Below are positions 1,591 through 8,863 of a DNA stretch of 34,214 nucleotides, piece after piece (position 1 is the first letter of the stretch; the number at the start of each line of letters is the position of its first letter). The notes below the pieces were generated by a model. The model made no database searches, was not told the DNA's origin, and saw nothing but the letters and a program-made list of their open reading frames with translations. The stretch spans positions 1-34,214 of the forward strand of contig JADHNB010000007.1 of assembly GCA_016779705.1 (NCBI GenBank), given 5' to 3'. Source of the DNA: Candidatus Poseidonia sp. GTDB lineage: Archaea > Thermoplasmatota > Poseidoniia > Poseidoniales > Poseidoniaceae. Made by a program: the position numbers and the translations under genes.

Positions 1591-2364
1591 TCAGTCTAAC
1601 GACCCCATTTGCTGAACCGTTTCCTCGGGTTTCGTGCCACGGAAGCGACTCGCCATGCCAAAGGGATACAGCAGTCGCCCCTGTACCTGCTGGAATCCGA
1701 CGTCCTTCAACATGCGACGGTAGTAGCCGTTGGTCCCGTAATGGGTGTAACTGCGGGCCAATCCCTTCCACGGGTGGTCTTTCTCCCCGGTGATGAGGCG
1801 CGCCATGATTTGGACCACCGAGTTCATCCACAAGTAGCCAAAGACGCCGTGAAGTTTGTTGGCTTTACCGGCATCGCAGATCACGAGCCGACCGCCCGGC
1901 TTCAGCACCCGATAGATTTCCTTCAAGCCTTGAGCCTTGTCTTGGAAATCTCGAAACGAGAACAGACAAAACACCATGTCGAAGGTGTTGTCTGGCAAGG
2001 GGATGTCCTCTGCGATGGCTTGAACGTAGGCTGCAGGAGCTTCGCCGCGCGTCGCACGTGCAGCGTCCACCCGTGGCTGGGCCACGGCCAACATTTCAGG
2101 CGAAGGGTCAAGGCAGGTGACGTCCAAGCCGACCAGGTCTTCGGCAAACGAACCGGGGCCGCACCCCACCTCCAGCACCTTCATGCCGGGCGAAGCGTGG
2201 TCCCTCACGTTGCGTCGCCATCGCTTGTCTTGGCCAAACGTCATCCAAGCGTTGACTCGGTCGTAGTTTGGAATCGTGGCCTCGAGTTGGCCTTCCAGTT
2301 CCTCCCACGCTTCCGTGTCGATGCCGGAGGGGTCAAACCCGCCCGTTGCAGCACGCTTGCCCAT
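1591..2364 (-). CDS. Class I SAM-dependent methyltransferase (UbiE/MenG-like)
   Basis: SAM motif I VLEVGCGPGSFAEDL, acidic strand DVTCLDPSPEML, post motif NTFDMVFCLFSFRDFQDKAQGLKEIYRVLKPGGRLVICD. Confidence 0.85.
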   Translation of the reverse strand: MGKRAATGGFDPSGIDTEAWEELEGQLEATIPNYDRVNAWMTFGQDKRWRRNVRDHASPGMKVLEVGCGPGSFAEDLVGLDVTCLDPSPEMLAVAQPRVDAARATRGEAPAAYVQAIAEDIPLPDNTFDMVFCLFSFRDFQDKAQGLKEIYRVLKPGGRLVICDAGKANKLHGVFGYLWMNSVVQIMARLITGEKDHPWKGLARSYTHYGTNGYYRRMLKDVGFQQVQGRLLYPFGMASRFRGTKPEETVQQMGSLD

Positions 2365-2419: not shown

Positions 2420-3223
2420 TCAGGCGATACGTTCCACGGTTTCGGGCGTAATGCCTTCTTCAGGCGTTACACGGAAGACAAGAATCTTCAGGTTCTCCGG
2501 TGCGTTTCGGAATTTCGAGACGATCATTGAATTTTCAAAATCCGTACCAACGGTCCTGACCTTGAACGACAGCACCATGTCGGCGATGGAGGACAACTCT
2601 TGCTTGATGGAGGGGTCCAAACCATCGGTTGAAACGGAAATCATCAGCAGTCCTCGAACCATCTGTGCGTGGGCCTGAAGCATGCGGACCATGGAAATTA
2701 CACGGGCGGGGTCCTCACGCTGCAAGAAGAAATCCAGGTTGTCAAGCACCGCACGAAAGTAGGGGCCCAAACCCATGATTTCGTTCGTGACTTCGGTCAA
2801 GTAGTCCTGATTGTTGTCGTCCACGAAACGCGTTTGGGCGAGGCGTTGAATGTCGGCGAGTTGAAACCCTTCCAAGCGGTAGCGGCTGGCCAGCAACTGG
2901 CGCTCAAGCACGTTGGCGTTGTACTCCTCTCCAATGGTTCGAACGTTGATGTCGAGCGGCCAGCCGTACTTCTGGAAGATCCGAATGATTTCGGCTTGGC
3001 CTTCGTCGGTGGCGATGTAAAGCGTGTTTTCCGGTTCTTCGGCGGGCGATGTGAATTGCTTGGCGAACAGCTCGCTTCCCGACCCGGTTTCGGTGAATGC
3101 AATCATGGTGAAGCCACGGGGAACGCCCCCACGCATCTCTGAATCGAATTTGGGGACGCCAAAGGAGCCCACCTTGCCGAAAAATTCCTCGTCTTCGGGG
3201 TCAAACGTGACTTTTCGTGCCAT
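2420..3223 (-). CDS. KaiC/RecA-superfamily-like protein with degenerate Walker A
   Basis: KaiC-like N-terminal layout (FGVPKFDSEMRGGVPRGFTMIAFTETGSGSELFAKQF), but no GxxxxGK[TS]: the P-loop position reads TETGSGSELF. Strong SD-like GAGGTGATG before the ATG. Confidence 0.65.
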   Translation of the reverse strand: MARKVTFDPEDEEFFGKVGSFGVPKFDSEMRGGVPRGFTMIAFTETGSGSELFAKQFTSPAEEPENTLYIATDEGQAEIIRIFQKYGWPLDINVRTIGEEYNANVLERQLLASRYRLEGFQLADIQRLAQTRFVDDNNQDYLTEVTNEIMGLGPYFRAVLDNLDFFLQREDPARVISMVRMLQAHAQMVRGLLMISVSTDGLDPSIKQELSSIADMVLSFKVRTVGTDFENSMIVSKFRNAPENLKILVFRVTPEEGITPETVERIA

Positions 3224-3234
3224 GCATCATCACC

Positions 3235-3819
3235 TCAGAGGAGAACCACCTGGCCTCGGTCGACGAGGTCCGTGCAATAGGTGTCCAGATTGGCCAGCAC
3301 CAGTGGAGGGGTTTGGTCGGGGACATTGAGAATCACCGACAACACCTCTCGTTGACGGAACGTGTTGATGAACGTATGCAAGTATTCGGCCAACATCCGG
3401 TCGTCGTTGTAAATCGCCAAGGCATTGACGCTGTCGAGGAACACGAAGTTGCGTTGGCTGCTGACGGTGCGAAGGGTGTACAGCGTTCGCAACAGGATGC
3501 TTTCGAGCATGATGGGGCTGTCAACGAAGGAGATGTTGGAATAGGGCACGTCCGTGCCCCCCAACACGCCCGATGAGACCAAATCAAGGAAGTGAATGTT
3601 CGACACGTCCACACCCACCGCTTCGAAGGCCTGAATGATTTCAGCGGCGCCACGGCTTGCCGAGATGTACACTCCGCCCATTTCGAACATCTGCATCAGG
3701 GGAACCATCGTGCTGGCGGTCACGGCAAACGTGTTGGCAGCGCTCATGCGCACTTGGATGGAACTGCTCAAGGACACTTGGGTGAGTTGTTCGGCAATCC
3801 GTTGGTCGAGTTCAAACAT
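3235..3819 (-). CDS. RecA/KaiC-superfamily-like protein lacking a P-loop Lys
   Basis: The P-loop position appears to be FAVTASTMVPLMQMFEMG. A Walker B-like strand is kept (NFVFLDSVNALAIY). Sits between the other two KaiC-like genes, 2 bp from the upstream stop. Confidence 0.55.
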   Translation of the reverse strand: MFELDQRIAEQLTQVSLSSSIQVRMSAANTFAVTASTMVPLMQMFEMGGVYISASRGAAEIIQAFEAVGVDVSNIHFLDLVSSGVLGGTDVPYSNISFVDSPIMLESILLRTLYTLRTVSSQRNFVFLDSVNALAIYNDDRMLAEYLHTFINTFRQREVLSVILNVPDQTPPLVLANLDTYCTDLVDRGQVVLL

Positions 3820-3821
3820 CG

Positions 3822-4604
3822 CTACTGCCCCCACCTTGATGTCTTGTCAGCGGATGCCCCCCATTTGAGCATCGGGATGAGCATCACGCCAAGCGGCGTT
3901 AGTTCAATGGCGTGCTTGGCGCGACTGTGGGAAGTGCCACGCATCTTCACCACTTGCAGGAACCGAAGCAAGTGACCCATGCGCTCGGAGTCACCCATCA
4001 CGATGATGCCGTCAGCGATGGCTTCTTCCACACCGAAGGACGACCAGTGAGCGTTTTCGGTCGCCGAGGTGATCTCGGAGATGAGAATCGTGGTGCAGCC
4101 AAGGGTGGCGAGTTTTTTTCCGAGCGTGAACAGGAAGTCTCGAATCAATTGTTCTGACTTGATTTTGTAACACAGCGTGGTGACCGAATCGATGACGAGG
4201 CGGGTCACACCGATGGTGTTGACGATGTCAACAATGGACTTGATGAGGGCGTGGACATCGTCGAGTTCAAAGGAGGCTTTATCCAAACCCAGCCAAGAGT
4301 ACAGCACGTCCATGTCAAAGACGTTGATCAGGCCCGAATCGACCATGTTCATGTCAAAGAAGGCGTACTGGCGGATGTTTTCCAACAATTTCACCGAAGG
4401 TTCCGTGGCCGTAAAGTGAGCGCAGGCTTCGCCAGCCAGGGCCCCACGCACGAGAAATTCCATCCCAAGGGTGGTCTTGCCCGAACCGCAAGTTCCGGCG
4501 GCCAGGACCGTGGAGCCGTAAGGGATTCCCCCTCGAAGAATTTCATCCAATCCGTGAATGCCCGTCACGCATCGGTCTCGGGTGTAAACGCTGCTTGGCT
4601 GCAT
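3822..4604 (-). CDS. KaiC-like/RAD55-family ATPase with intact Walker A
   Basis: TGIHGLDEILRGGIPYGSTVLAAGTCGSGKTTLGMEFL (Walker A GTCGSGKTT) and TRLVIDSVTTL (Walker B-like). Confidence 0.87.
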   Translation of the reverse strand: MQPSSVYTRDRCVTGIHGLDEILRGGIPYGSTVLAAGTCGSGKTTLGMEFLVRGALAGEACAHFTATEPSVKLLENIRQYAFFDMNMVDSGLINVFDMDVLYSWLGLDKASFELDDVHALIKSIVDIVNTIGVTRLVIDSVTTLCYKIKSEQLIRDFLFTLGKKLATLGCTTILISEITSATENAHWSSFGVEEAIADGIIVMGDSERMGHLLRFLQVVKMRGTSHSRAKHAIELTPLGVMLIPMLKWGASADKTSRWGQ

Positions 4605-4672: not shown

Positions 4673-5773
4673 TCATGAAGCGGAGGTTTCACCGGGCGAA
4701 GGGGCGTCCGAGATGCTCCAAGCAGCGTCGGAGAACCGGTCCGTTCCGTCCCACACCAACGATTGGCCCGTGACCAAAAACAGGCCGGTGTTTCCGCCCC
4801 ATTCCACCTTCGCCACATCAGCTGGGGTGACTTCGGCAAGTTGGGTGTAGCGCAGGCGAAGTACGCCTTGACCATCGGCGAGCCCGTTGAGTTGCCCCAC
4901 GCCCAAAAAACCGCTTTGGCCGAGGTCGATAACGTGGGTGGCGTTTCCGTATTCTTGCGTGGAAGGGTCGCCGCTGAACACCGAAATCGAGCGACCCGAG
5001 AGCACGCCGTCTTGGAGCAAGATGTTGCTGCCGGACGAACCCGAAGTGTGGTTGAACGACCAACCTTTCAGCGAGACGGCGAAGTCGTTCGGATTGTACA
5101 CTTCAATCCATTCGGGCCCGCTCTGGGACGGACGATTCATCACTTCCATGAGGTGAAGGTGGTTGTGTTTCCGCCCTCCGTCGTGGACCTCCAACACCAG
5201 GCGAATCAATTCCCCGTCCTGCTGGAAGGACCGGTAGGCGGTGGACGAAGCGGGGGCAGTGCCCCGCTGGGTGCCGCCGTTAAACAGAGCAAACCCCTCA
5301 CGTGAAGCGTTGGAGCTCTCAATGACCACGATGGAAAGGTGGAGGCTCATGTCGTCGGCGAGCCCAAGGCCGGCGGCCATCCCGTCTTCCGTGACGTTGT
5401 GAAGCGCCTCAATCCGGTCCATATCGAGGCGATAGCCCGCCATGAGGCCGGGCTGAACGCGCCCGTCCGAGAGCGCTTCTGCTGATTCAAGATGCCAATC
5501 CTCCGTTGCGTTCCCGTAGTCCAACCCATTATCGGCGGGCACAAACCAGCCACTGCCGGAGGTCAGTCGGTCAACACCGAGCGCAGCAGCCCGATCGAGC
5601 CGGTCCACTTCGGGGTCGTTGGAACCCATTTGGAGTTGGGCCAGCGAAATGAACGCCGTGAGGATCATCAAAAACAGGGTAAAGGCCGAAAGAAACTCGA
5701 TGACCGCTGTGAGCCCCCCTTCGTCACGCTCGTTGGAGACGGACGCAAGGTGGCGCATGGATGAACGAAGCAT
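4673..5773 (-). CDS. Type IV pilin-like N-terminus protein with lamin-tail (LTD)-like domain
   Basis: N-terminal NERDEGGLTAVIEFLSAFTLFLMILTAFISLAQLQM resembles archaeal class III signal peptide/pilin helices. Mid-protein EVMNRPSQSGPEWIEVYNPNDFAVSLKGWSFNHTSGSSGSN matches the LTD consensus. Confidence 0.6.
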   Translation of the reverse strand: MLRSSMRHLASVSNERDEGGLTAVIEFLSAFTLFLMILTAFISLAQLQMGSNDPEVDRLDRAAALGVDRLTSGSGWFVPADNGLDYGNATEDWHLESAEALSDGRVQPGLMAGYRLDMDRIEALHNVTEDGMAAGLGLADDMSLHLSIVVIESSNASREGFALFNGGTQRGTAPASSTAYRSFQQDGELIRLVLEVHDGGRKHNHLHLMEVMNRPSQSGPEWIEVYNPNDFAVSLKGWSFNHTSGSSGSNILLQDGVLSGRSISVFSGDPSTQEYGNATHVIDLGQSGFLGVGQLNGLADGQGVLRLRYTQLAEVTPADVAKVEWGGNTGLFLVTGQSLVWDGTDRFSDAAWSISDAPSPGETSAS

Positions 5774-5911
5774 CAGCGATTCATGAGGTTGCCGCCCCCT
5801 CTTGGGCCCTGTTTGACAAAATCACCGAGGGCAATCAGCGCTGCGGAGAAGGGCGGTTCACACCGGGTACAGAGCGATGAGTCTTTGAAGCACGGATGCG
5901 AGGGAACCTTG

Positions 5912-8863
5912 ATGAGCGAGCGAAAGCCAAGCAAAGGTTCGACCAAACATTTCGGCCTCGGACTCGTGGCCATGTTGCTGCTTTCCTCCATGGGCGGCTT
6001 GCTGTTGGTACCGGCCACCAGCGCTAACCACACGGTTTCGGGAAGCCTCGGCATCACCGCCAGTCTCTCGCCGACGCCGGACATGTGGTACCAAAACATG
6101 GACGTCATCACCTTCACGGCGGAAGTCACCAATTTCTACACCACCCCGAGCGGTGGCGCCCGTACGCTGAATTGGTATGCTTGTGCTGGCAACATTGCAG
6201 CCAACCTGTGCAAATCGACCTACACCGATACCGGCACGTTCCTTGTCCCGAACATCGACAACGGGAACCCAGAGAACCTCACGTCAAGTGCCACCTGGTC
6301 CCCAAACGGAGCGAGCGGCATCCATACCATCGTTTACGGCTTTAGCCACAACGACCAAAACGCGTCCGACGACGCTTACGTCTTCAACATCAACCTCACG
6401 GAATACTTTGTTGACATCAGCCTTGACGCCGCCCATGACCCCCTTGAACATCTCCAAAACCTGGCCGAATATGACGGCGATACGGTGTTGAACACCGGCA
6501 CCGCCTACACCTTCAAAGCGAAGGGGACCTCGTACATTTGCGGAAACCCGTGCACGTTAGCTGCTGAATTCGGTTGGCAACTTTGGGATTTGGCTGAAAC
6601 CGTGAAACTCAAGGAAGGATACCGTACGCTTTCCATGACCGGTTGGGGCGGAATTGACCCGTTGAACGTGAACCTGCCCAACCTCACGTTTGAGCAAGAA
6701 GGGCGGTTTTTGCTCAAGTACGGCCTGTTTGGCAGCACCGGGAACCCCAACCCCGATTTGAATGCCCACAACAACCTCGCCTCGTTTGAACTGGTCTTCA
6801 ACGACAGTTTGGACTTGAAAATCAACGATGTTTATCCAAGTCACGACCGGACATCAAGCCAATTTTACTTCGGAACCGACCGGGTCGTGGTGGAGATTTC
6901 CAACGATGGCAACATGACGGTGGACGGAACCACGCTCAATTTTGAGGTCTATGACCAGCAATACGAACTTGAAGTGCAGGATGCTTGCGAAATCCCAACG
7001 ATGTATCCCGGTTCGGTGACCACCTGTTCGCTCAACCTCACGACCACCGGTGCTTCTCGGTTGTTTCGCGCTCAATTGCCGACCGTTTTCACCGAAGGCG
7101 AGGACGTGCGCATGGGCGACAACTTGTATTCCGTGACCGCCGATGTCGTCATCGGTCCAATTCAACCCAACATCCAGATCAACTCTCAAACGAAGGTGTT
7201 CCTCAGCAGCGATGACGTGGAACTCGTGGGACGGTTCAGCCCCATCGCGTCTCAACCGCTCAATTACACCTGGAGGGAAGGCTTCTACACCTGGGGGCAC
7301 GGCCAAGTACTCAACGTCACGGGCGAGGAGTTCGGCTTGGGCCCGCACAACGTTTCGCTTCAGGTGCAGGACCCGTGGGGGAACACCGAGTATGCCTACA
7401 TTGAATTTGATGTCCTCAACGCCATCAACATCACCAACGAACCCTACTTCAGAGGAAGCGTCACCTCCGACCAAGAAGCGACCTTCACCCACGACATCGT
7501 GTTGCCCACCCTTGGCGCATCCTACAGCATCGGACAAGGAAAATCGCCGCTGTTGCTCATCGACCTGAACGTCGAGGGCATCAACGGTGCTGAAAACGGC
7601 CTTCGTAGCATCGAACTTGACCTGAACCTCACGGCGTTGCTTCCCGAGAGCATCGACTTCACCACGGTTGACTTGCGATACTTGCCCGCCACGGACACCC
7701 AACTGTGGAGTTACATTGAAGGCGTGGACACCTTTGAGTTCAACCCGACGGGAGACCGAGTTTCGGTCTCCCTGACCAAAGACGGCGTCATCCTCCTCAT
7801 CGGCGTGCTGCCACCGACCGATGTCAAGGCCATTGAGTTTGATTGGAGCCAACGCAAGGGAGGCCAAATTCAATTGGATTGGAGCGCCGAAGGTGACATC
7901 ACCAACCCCTACGTCGGCGGTTGGAACATCTACAAGGTCCAAGGCATCACCGGAACCACGGTGTTCCCCGACCCGGAGGGCGGTGTGGGAACCAACGTGT
8001 GGGAGGAGTTGACCGCCACCACCCGGGTCGCCACGCTCTCCATTGAAGCCACCCAATGGCAGGACCCAGAATTCCTCGAAACCGGCATCTGTGCGTCCTA
8101 CGCCATTGCCCCCATCGACCGGGAAGGCTTGCCCAATTACGACATGATCAACGTGACCCGAGTGAACGGAGTGGCCGAGTTGTTGTGCGGCGACGCCTTG
8201 CCACCAACCACGACGGTTGAGCAATTCAGACACACCTGGCAATTCACCAACGACACGGCGTGCTTTGACCTGCGCAAGGACTGGTCCTCGTGCTACGAGG
8301 TCACCCTGAATTGGGTCTGGCCCGCTCATGAACCTCAAGGCAACGTGAGTTGGAACCTGTATCGCGTGGAGTTTGCACCCGATAACGTCGACCTCCGGTT
8401 CATTGACCCCATCGCCTTTGACCTCGCTGGCGTCCCCGGGGAACAAGGCACCTTCTCACAAGCGGGATTGGACAACGATGGCATCCGCCCCTATCGAACC
8501 TACTACTACATCCTGGCCCCCATCGACAGTGTCGGTAACGAGTTGATGATCGCTGACTACCCGTCCCCCAACATCGAGCGCGTCCACATCGACGACGACT
8601 GGTGGGCGTACAACCAACACATCATTCCGCCCGAGCCGGAACCTCCCGAACCCCCCTTGGGCATTCCTTGGCTTCAGAAACTCAACGATGCGACGCAAGT
8701 CACGGAATTCCAACTCGCCGGGGCAGCCCTTTTGGCGACCATCTTGCTGAATTTCATCCTGCTGCCCTTGATTCTCAAGAAGCGAAAGCGGCTGAAGCGC
8801 GTGGTGGAGGCAAGAAAGCGAAACGCTGCCGCCACCAACGAGTTTGACGACTTCTTTGAGTGA
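5912..8863 (+). CDS. Large secreted, C-terminally membrane-anchored surface protein (beta-sandwich-like repeats)
   Basis: The ORF extends to 5783, but the likely start is ATG at 5912 (MSERKPSKGSTKHFGLGLVAMLLLSSMGGLLLVPATSANHT, a signal peptide). Many NxS/T sequons. C-terminal TM plus basic tail (AALLATILLNFILLPLILKKRKRLKRVVEARKR). Confidence 0.75.
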   Translation: MSERKPSKGSTKHFGLGLVAMLLLSSMGGLLLVPATSANHTVSGSLGITASLSPTPDMWYQNMDVITFTAEVTNFYTTPSGGARTLNWYACAGNIAANLCKSTYTDTGTFLVPNIDNGNPENLTSSATWSPNGASGIHTIVYGFSHNDQNASDDAYVFNINLTEYFVDISLDAAHDPLEHLQNLAEYDGDTVLNTGTAYTFKAKGTSYICGNPCTLAAEFGWQLWDLAETVKLKEGYRTLSMTGWGGIDPLNVNLPNLTFEQEGRFLLKYGLFGSTGNPNPDLNAHNNLASFELVFNDSLDLKINDVYPSHDRTSSQFYFGTDRVVVEISNDGNMTVDGTTLNFEVYDQQYELEVQDACEIPTMYPGSVTTCSLNLTTTGASRLFRAQLPTVFTEGEDVRMGDNLYSVTADVVIGPIQPNIQINSQTKVFLSSDDVELVGRFSPIASQPLNYTWREGFYTWGHGQVLNVTGEEFGLGPHNVSLQVQDPWGNTEYAYIEFDVLNAINITNEPYFRGSVTSDQEATFTHDIVLPTLGASYSIGQGKSPLLLIDLNVEGINGAENGLRSIELDLNLTALLPESIDFTTVDLRYLPATDTQLWSYIEGVDTFEFNPTGDRVSVSLTKDGVILLIGVLPPTDVKAIEFDWSQRKGGQIQLDWSAEGDITNPYVGGWNIYKVQGITGTTVFPDPEGGVGTNVWEELTATTRVATLSIEATQWQDPEFLETGICASYAIAPIDREGLPNYDMINVTRVNGVAELLCGDALPPTTTVEQFRHTWQFTNDTACFDLRKDWSSCYEVTLNWVWPAHEPQGNVSWNLYRVEFAPDNVDLRFIDPIAFDLAGVPGEQGTFSQAGLDNDGIRPYRTYYYILAPIDSVGNELMIADYPSPNIERVHIDDDWWAYNQHIIPPEPEPPEPPLGIPWLQKLNDATQVTEFQLAGAALLATILLNFILLPLILKKRKRLKRVVEARKRNAAATNEFDDFFE

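What the first reader, a model, noticed from the sequence alone, without database searches (positions are those of the whole stretch)
2420..4604. Three consecutive KaiC/RecA-type genes, one with Walker A and two without
The first gene (3822-4604) has an intact GTCGSGKTT. The next two, separated by 2 and 11 bp, keep RecA-like architecture but have no GKT (TETGSGSELF; TASTMVPLMQ). Tight coupling of one active ATPase with two degenerate paralogues suggests a hetero-oligomeric switch with pseudo-ATPase regulatory subunits. KaiC/FlaH-type proteins form rings; a three-component ring with inactive members would be unusual.
Basis: partly seen in the sequence, partly recalled or inferred. Interest (0 to 1): 0.65.

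Follow-up and report, generated by a model that had tools for sequence, protein, structure and literature searches.

The report
Archaeal KaiC trio with two pseudo-ATPases
Three neighbouring genes in a marine archaeon encode one working clock-protein-type (KaiC) ATPase and two relatives that have lost the ATP-binding loop; the three-gene set is kept in order across much of an archaeal phylum and often sits beside pilus genes, so it looks like a built-in regulatory complex rather than gene decay.

Summary
A (3822-4604) is a single-domain KaiC ATPase with an intact P-loop. B (3235-3819) and C (2420-3223) follow 2 and 11 bp later and lack a Walker A lysine. C is clearly KaiC (Pfam 2e-15, PDB KaiC 1e-28); B is a shortened KaiC fold (profile 1e-6; Foldseek top 50 all KaiC-like). 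The host is a Poseidoniaceae (Marine Group II) genome.

The trio is no local oddity. C lies directly downstream of B in 74 of 86 C loci sampled outside Poseidoniaceae across Thermoplasmatota, and A heads most fetched loci. dN/dS is 0.01-0.02 for all three. C has not decayed: its altered loop carries an invariant Lys-Gln, and it keeps the KaiC subunit-interface K-x-R/K-N. B lacks both loop and interface hairpin.

It is not the archaellum's ArlH, which this genome encodes elsewhere. In nine loci a type IV pilin is the next gene; all ten pilin-motif genes in 40 loci lie there. Best reading: a hetero-oligomeric KaiC switch (ATPase, trans-activating pseudo-ATPase, adaptor) regulating a type IV pilus or other surface filament. 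The complex and its target are inferred. Inactivated KaiC domains are known in archaea; this fixed 1+2 module appears to be a new variant.

The parts
3822..4604 (-). Gene A: single-domain KaiC-family ATPase, 260 aa
   Evidence: PF06745 3e-52, PDB KaiC 2e-39
4470..4496 (-). A: Walker A GTCGSGKTT (residues 37-45)
   Evidence: GxxGxGK[T/S] kept in all A homologues that cover the site
3936..3947 (-). A: K220-M-R-G, KaiC-type subunit-interface (trans-acting) motif
   Evidence: K220, R222 and H226 invariant in the A6 alignment; aligns to KaiC KLRG/KMRG
3235..3819 (-). Gene B: 194-aa KaiC-fold pseudo-ATPase without P-loop and without the C-terminal interface hairpin
   Evidence: hhalign to A E=1.2e-6; Foldseek top 50 in PDB all KaiC-like
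3430..3435 (-). B: Walker-B-like D129-S130 (hhhhDS), D129 invariant
   Evidence: Invariant/near-invariant in 32 sequences
2420..3223 (-). Gene C: 267-aa KaiC-family pseudo-ATPase
   Evidence: PF06745 2.3e-15; PDB KaiC 1.4e-28; hhalign to A 2e-15
3056..3094 (-). C: altered loop T44-ETGSGSELFAKQ-56; Walker A K and T replaced (S50, E51); K55-Q56 invariant
   Evidence: K55, Q56, E74 and G37 invariant in 28 sequences down to 21% identity
2504..2515 (-). C: K237-F-R239-N240, counterpart of the KaiC KxRG interface motif
   Evidence: N240 invariant, K237 nearly so, basic residue at 239 in all
4673..5773 (-). Upstream gene: pilin-like hydrophobic N-terminus plus lamin-tail domain (LTD), likely exported; syntenic with the trio in Poseidoniales and in L136
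   Evidence: PF00932 1.5e-7 (just below cut-off), synteny
1591..2364 (-). Downstream UbiE/COQ5-type methyltransferase; neighbour in Poseidoniaceae, probably not part of the module
   Evidence: PF01209 6e-30; synteny in Poseidoniaceae only

Best explanation
A, B and C are three ancient, co-transcribed members of the KaiC superfamily that work together as one regulatory complex in Thermoplasmatota. Shown: A keeps all ATP-site elements. C has lost the Walker A Lys/Thr in a fixed way but keeps the KaiC interface residues. B keeps only the core sheet and the Walker-B-like Asp. All three are under strong purifying selection in a fixed gene order. Inferred: A binds and hydrolyses (or autophosphorylates with) ATP as part of a KaiC/ArlH-like ring or partial ring. 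C docks beside A and supplies the trans-acting K-x-R/K without firing itself, so A's activity depends on C. B, lacking both loop and finger, caps or interrupts the ring and links it to a partner. Inferred with less certainty: the partner or output is a type IV pilus-type surface filament, because pilin genes follow the module directly in several families and a pilin-like LTD protein precedes it in Poseidoniales. In some lineages sensor genes join the module (MetOD1-like protein, or a KaiC-PAS-histidine kinase), which points to signal-dependent switching.
For: KaiC homology of all three. P-loop kept in A, absent in B and C throughout the phylum sample. Invariant K-Q/E/G signature and K-x-R/K-N in C. 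Order A-B-C in Poseidoniaceae. C directly downstream of B on the same strand in 74 of 86 non-Poseidoniaceae C loci. Overlapping or near-zero gaps. dN/dS medians A 0.012, B 0.020, C 0.017. A and C each come out as one clade. Pilin directly downstream on the same strand in 9 loci; all 10 pilin-motif ORFs among 552 ORFs of 40 loci are there. MetOD1-like sensor gene between B and C. B-B pair beside a KaiC-KaiC-PAS-GAF-HisKA-HATPase protein. 142 of 144 genomes with B also have a T4P-type ATPase match: compared by hand.
Against: No direct evidence of physical interaction or ring formation; co-transcription is inferred from spacing. Pilin adjacency is limited to 9 of 40 loci, and in most lineages the flanks are unrelated. 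A subset of lineages has A-B without C, so C is not always needed. In Thalassarchaeaceae the trio, the C106 pilus ATPase and the Tad-like ATPase are all absent from the same small-genome genera, which may be a single genome-reduction event and does not single out one partner. The AlphaFold model of C was poor and that of B moderate, so structural claims for C rest on sequence alignment.
Confidence: 0.5

Rival explanations
1. The trio is the ArlH (FlaH) component of this organism's archaellum, triplicated and partly decayed.
For: C's best NCBIfam hit is ArlH (6.5e-13), and ArlH is a KaiC-like ring protein that binds but does not hydrolyse ATP (PMC8978795).
Against: The genome has an archaellum operon on contig C81 with its own ArlH (244 aa, P-loop intact) directly before ArlI. 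Hits to the ArlH model are far below the equivalog cut-off (49 and 35 vs 215 bits). Thalassarchaeaceae genera g14 and g21 have a 34%-identical ATPase of the size and kind of the archaellum ArlI but no trio.
Confidence: 0.05
2. A KaiC-type cytoplasmic signalling hub (ATPase plus two inactive partners) whose output is not pili but transcription, metabolism or another process; the pilin neighbours are incidental.
For: KaiC-like ATPases, some inactivated (iKaiC), are proposed archaeal signalling hubs (PMC5847659, citing Makarova 2017). MetOD1-like and PAS/histidine-kinase neighbours occur. Flanking genes differ among lineages.
Against: Every pilin-motif ORF found in 40 loci is directly downstream of the module. 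Pilin-like LTD gene upstream in Poseidoniales. Near-universal presence of a T4P ATPase in genomes with B.
Confidence: 0.33
3. B and C are non-functional remnants of tandem duplication.
For: Both lack a Walker A motif; B is shortened.
Against: dN/dS about 0.02, near that of A; phylum-wide retention, order and invariant residues.
Confidence: 0.01
4. A, B and C are co-transcribed but act separately, for example B and C bind other ligands or proteins on their own with the KaiC fold reused as a scaffold.
For: A-B occurs without C; C occurs in ten sampled genomes where B was not detected; C's fixed loop with invariant K-Q could bind a non-nucleotide ligand.
Against: Tight coupling of all three genes in most lineages; C keeps the subunit-interface motif.
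Confidence: 0.11

Closest known systems
KaiC-like ATPases of archaea (PF06745) and inactivated iKaiC domains (Makarova, Galperin and Koonin 2017; cited in PMC5847659)
   Same: Same superfamily; inactivated members and links to sensor/output domains are known
   Different: Here a fixed operon of one active and two distinct inactive stand-alone paralogues, kept across Thermoplasmatota; published iKaiC examples that I could read are haloarchaeal domain fusions. The 2017 paper itself was not available to read.
ArlH/FlaH of the archaellum (4YDS, 4WIA)
   Same: Single-domain KaiC fold; C profile matches ArlH structures; ArlH works as a regulator of an ArlI/T4P-type ATPase
   Different: Different gene, outside the archaellum operon, two P-loop-less partners; own ArlH present elsewhere
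CirA of Haloferax volcanii (KaiC-like regulator linked to type IV pilin-mediated motility; PMC13286277, citing Chatterjee 2024)
   Same: KaiC-like regulator linked to pilin and motility output
   Different: No two-pseudo-ATPase operon described; homology to A specifically not tested here
Cyanobacterial KaiC (1TF7 and relatives)
   Same: Closest solved structures to A and C; P-loop and KxRG interface logic
   Different: Double-domain, all sites active, with KaiA/KaiB; this is three single-domain proteins, two without P-loop
Pfam DUF7090, DUF7125, DUF7504 (described as KaiC/RecA-like families)
   Same: Weak matches to B (DUF7090) and C (DUF7125, DUF7504)
   Different: All below curated cut-offs

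Membership tests
KaiC superfamily (PF06745) | Score above the curated cut-off of 26.6 bits | tested here: met
   A 177.7 and C 57.1 bits met; B 20.6 bits not met on its own, though profile-profile and fold search place B with KaiC
KaiC superfamily, active ATPase | Walker A GxxxxGK[T/S] | tested here: not met
   Met by A only; B and C lack it in all homologues that cover the site, apart from a K followed by E in the MGIII-type C
KaiC superfamily, ring interface | C-terminal K-x-R trans-acting motif | tested here: met
   A KMRG, C K-x-[RK]-N; B ends before it
ArlH (archaellum) | NCBIfam NF052589 equivalog cut-off 215 bits | tested here: not met
   C 48.9, A 35 bits
ArlH (archaellum) | Encoded in the archaellum operon next to ArlI/ArlJ | tested here: not met
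   Archaellum operon with its own ArlH is on contig C81
Circadian KaiC | Two tandem KaiC domains | tested here: not met
   All three are single-domain, 194-267 aa
Circadian KaiC | KaiA/KaiB partners | not tested
   No genome-wide search for KaiB was made
DUF7504/DUF7125/DUF7090 inactive KaiC-like families | Score above curated cut-off | tested here: not met
   C: 14.6 vs 27 and 23.2 vs 29.1; B: 18.9 vs 27
Hetero-oligomeric KaiC ring | Physical assembly of A, B and C | not testable with these tools
   No multimer prediction available

The most novel reading that the evidence does not exclude
A previously undescribed, phylum-wide hetero-ring switch in which one KaiC ATPase is controlled by two dedicated pseudo-ATPase subunits (one donating the trans finger with a repurposed P-loop, one capping the ring) and which sets the activity of an archaeal type IV pilus motor, a counterpart of ArlH for non-archaellum pili.
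Probability: 0.3. Interest if true: 0.75.

Novelty: new variant of a known kind. Interest (0 to 1): 0.52.

Why it matters
KaiC-like ATPases are thought to be central to archaeal signalling, but their partners are mostly unknown. A conserved one-active, two-inactive set in abundant surface-ocean archaea gives a defined, testable complex, a conserved alternative P-loop signature (G-x-x-G-x-G-x-[ED]-h-h-x-K-Q), and a candidate regulator for archaeal type IV pili that have no ArlH.

Tried and rejected
(1) Archaellum ArlH: rejected, the genome has a separate archaellum operon with ArlH. (2) Gene decay: rejected by dN/dS and conservation. (3) Using co-occurrence in Thalassarchaeaceae to name the C106 pilus as the specific partner: the Tad-like ATPase of contig C23 shows the same genus pattern, so it does not discriminate and may be one loss event. 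(4) hmmsearch of the B profile against the PDB gave nothing at E<=1; fold search was needed. (5) AlphaFold of C with a shallow alignment was too poor to use. (6) DUF7090/DUF7125: matches to B and C are below cut-off; each family is over its cut-off in only one of 14 control genomes, which the tool does not single out; not pursued. (7) Papers: no description of this trio found in the library; Makarova 2017 (mBio 01959-17) is not held.

Full report
What is there. On the - strand, three ORFs follow one another: A 4604-3822 (260 aa), B 3819-3235 (194 aa), C 3223-2420 (267 aa), with gaps of 2 and 11 bp. Upstream, 68 bp away, lies a 366-aa protein with a pilin-like hydrophobic N-terminus and a lamin-tail domain (LTD, 1.5e-7); downstream a UbiE-type methyltransferase. 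The window belongs to a 1.51-Mb, 68% complete genome of Poseidoniaceae (Marine Group IIa): its nearest loci carry titles such as 'Poseidonia sp.' and 'Candidatus Poseidoniaceae archaeon'.

Family. A is a KaiC ATPase (PF06745 177.7 bits; PDB KaiC 2e-39). C passes the KaiC cut-off (57.1 bits) and its profile hits KaiC structures at 1.4e-28 and archaellum protein H at 7e-10. B scores below the cut-off (20.6 bits), but profile-profile comparison with A gives E=1.2e-6. The AlphaFold model of B (pLDDT 65, pTM 0.70) retrieves only KaiC-like proteins in its top 50 PDB matches (E from 1.6e-4, TM 0.4-0.5). The model for C was too poor to use (pLDDT 43).

Conservation of the set. In Poseidoniaceae the block LTD-A-B-C-methyltransferase is syntenic in essentially every locus that is long enough, and C is in 140 of 146 family genomes. 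B occurs in 144 of 293 Thermoplasmatota genomes sampled, 70 of 137 genera; C at E<=1e-8 in 184 of 293, a figure that includes other KaiC paralogues. Taking strong C matches outside Poseidoniaceae, 74 of 86 lie directly downstream of a B hit on the same strand. In ten, no B was detected in the genome; in two, B is elsewhere. Seventeen genomes with B lack a strong C. In 40 loci read in full, A precedes B in most, with gaps from -50 to +30 in typical cases; a few loci are A-B without C, or A-B-B. Larger apparent overlaps come from over-extended ORF starts. A and C each form one clade in a maximum-likelihood tree (C 98/98; A 93/46, so weaker), which fits one ancient split. Long branches make the position of the ArlH outgroup unsafe.

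Which residues survive. A keeps GxxGxGK[T/S], the Glu of TEP and the Asp of Walker B in nearly all homologues. C has a conserved altered loop, consensus G-x-P-G-S-G-x-E-L-F-A-K-Q: the Walker A Lys is mostly T/S/M/I, the Mg-binding Thr/Ser is E or D, and K55-Q56, E74 and G37 are invariant in 28 sequences down to 21% identity. In MGIII-type genomes a Lys reappears at the Walker position but the following Thr is still Glu. C also keeps K-x-[R/K]-N, aligned to KaiC's KLRG/KMRG at the subunit interface; that these KaiC residues contact the neighbouring subunit's ATP is established knowledge, not tested here. B has neither loop nor C-terminal hairpin; its invariant residues are F77, D79, P102, E106, D129 and E145. 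dN/dS within Poseidoniaceae is 0.012 (A), 0.020 (B) and 0.017 (C), lower than the LTD protein (0.053) or the methyltransferase (0.032); dS is high, so the values are approximate.

What it is connected to. The genome has an archaellum operon on contig C81 with two archaellins, CDE, F, G and H and the start of ArlI, where the contig ends; the homologous operon of a relative shows ArlI and ArlJ complete. So the trio is not ArlH. The genome also has a PilB/ArlI-like pilus locus (C106) and a Tad-like locus (C23). In 9 distant loci (families f2, f7, f22, f30, f37, f38, f42) a typical archaeal pilin (PF07790, xVSPVIAT) is the next gene after B or C on the same strand; the 10 pilin-motif ORFs found among 552 ORFs in 40 loci are all at this place, one of them as a second copy. 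In two families a protein with MetOD1-like domains sits between B and C, and in 18 further genomes a gap of about 690 bp separates B and C matches; in the loci read, a 172-188 aa ORF of the same BLAST cluster fills that place, though it has no Pfam hit itself. In one lineage a B-B pair follows a 1512-aa KaiC-KaiC-PAS-GAF-histidine kinase. Of 144 genomes with B, 142 also have an ArlI/PilB-type ATPase match (compared by hand), but many genomes have the ATPase without B.

Co-occurrence test with limits. Within Thalassarchaeaceae, C occurs only in genera g15, g17, g19 and g22, exactly those with the C106-type ATPase; g14 and g21 have only the 34%-identical archaellum-type ATPase and no trio. However, the Tad-like ATPase shows the same pattern, and the lacking genera have smaller genomes, so this may be one loss event. 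It argues against dependence on the archaellum; it does not name the partner.

Mechanism. Most likely A is the nucleotide-driven subunit, C a pseudo-subunit that docks like a KaiC protomer and offers the trans residues, and B a capping or adaptor subunit; together they form a switch acting on a type IV pilus-type system, sometimes with a sensor. Homology, residue patterns, order and constraint are shown. Assembly, stoichiometry and target are inferred. ArlH (PMC8978795) and CirA (PMC13286277) are precedents for KaiC-like control of such filaments, and iKaiC (PMC5847659) for inactivated members; KaiC-family genes near archaeal pilus loci were noted before (PMC4858521). I found no description of this trio in the papers available, but the key survey (Makarova 2017) could not be read, so novelty is provisional.

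Noticed in passing
window 4673-5773 (-): Pilin-like N-terminus (TAVIEFLSAFTLFLMILTAFISLA) fused to a lamin-tail domain, always upstream of the trio in Poseidoniales and in L136; a possible secreted or surface partner.
   Followed up: partly
L126 (genome contig C106) and L170, L171, L172: A second type IV pilus locus with an ArlI/PilB-like ATPase, two TadC/ArlJ-like platform proteins (about 339 and 515 aa, the latter with a large extracellular insert) and two minor pilin-like proteins.
   Followed up: partly
L167:8466-13004 (-): A 1512-aa protein with two KaiC domains, PAS and GAF domains and a histidine kinase, next to two B-type pseudo-ATPase genes.
   Followed up: partly
L134:3751-4875 and L136:8285-9400: Duplicated MetOD1/ATC-hydrolase-like protein inserted between B and C, a candidate small-molecule sensor for the module.
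   Followed up: partly
L132, L133, L147 (MGIII-type genomes), gene C: A Lys is present at the Walker A position (GSxGSGKELLAKQ) but the following Thr is still Glu; possibly the ancestral or a reverted state.
   Followed up: no
window 5783-8863 (+): 1026-aa secreted, membrane-anchored protein with weak CARDB similarity, divergent from the LTD-A-B-C block.
   Followed up: no
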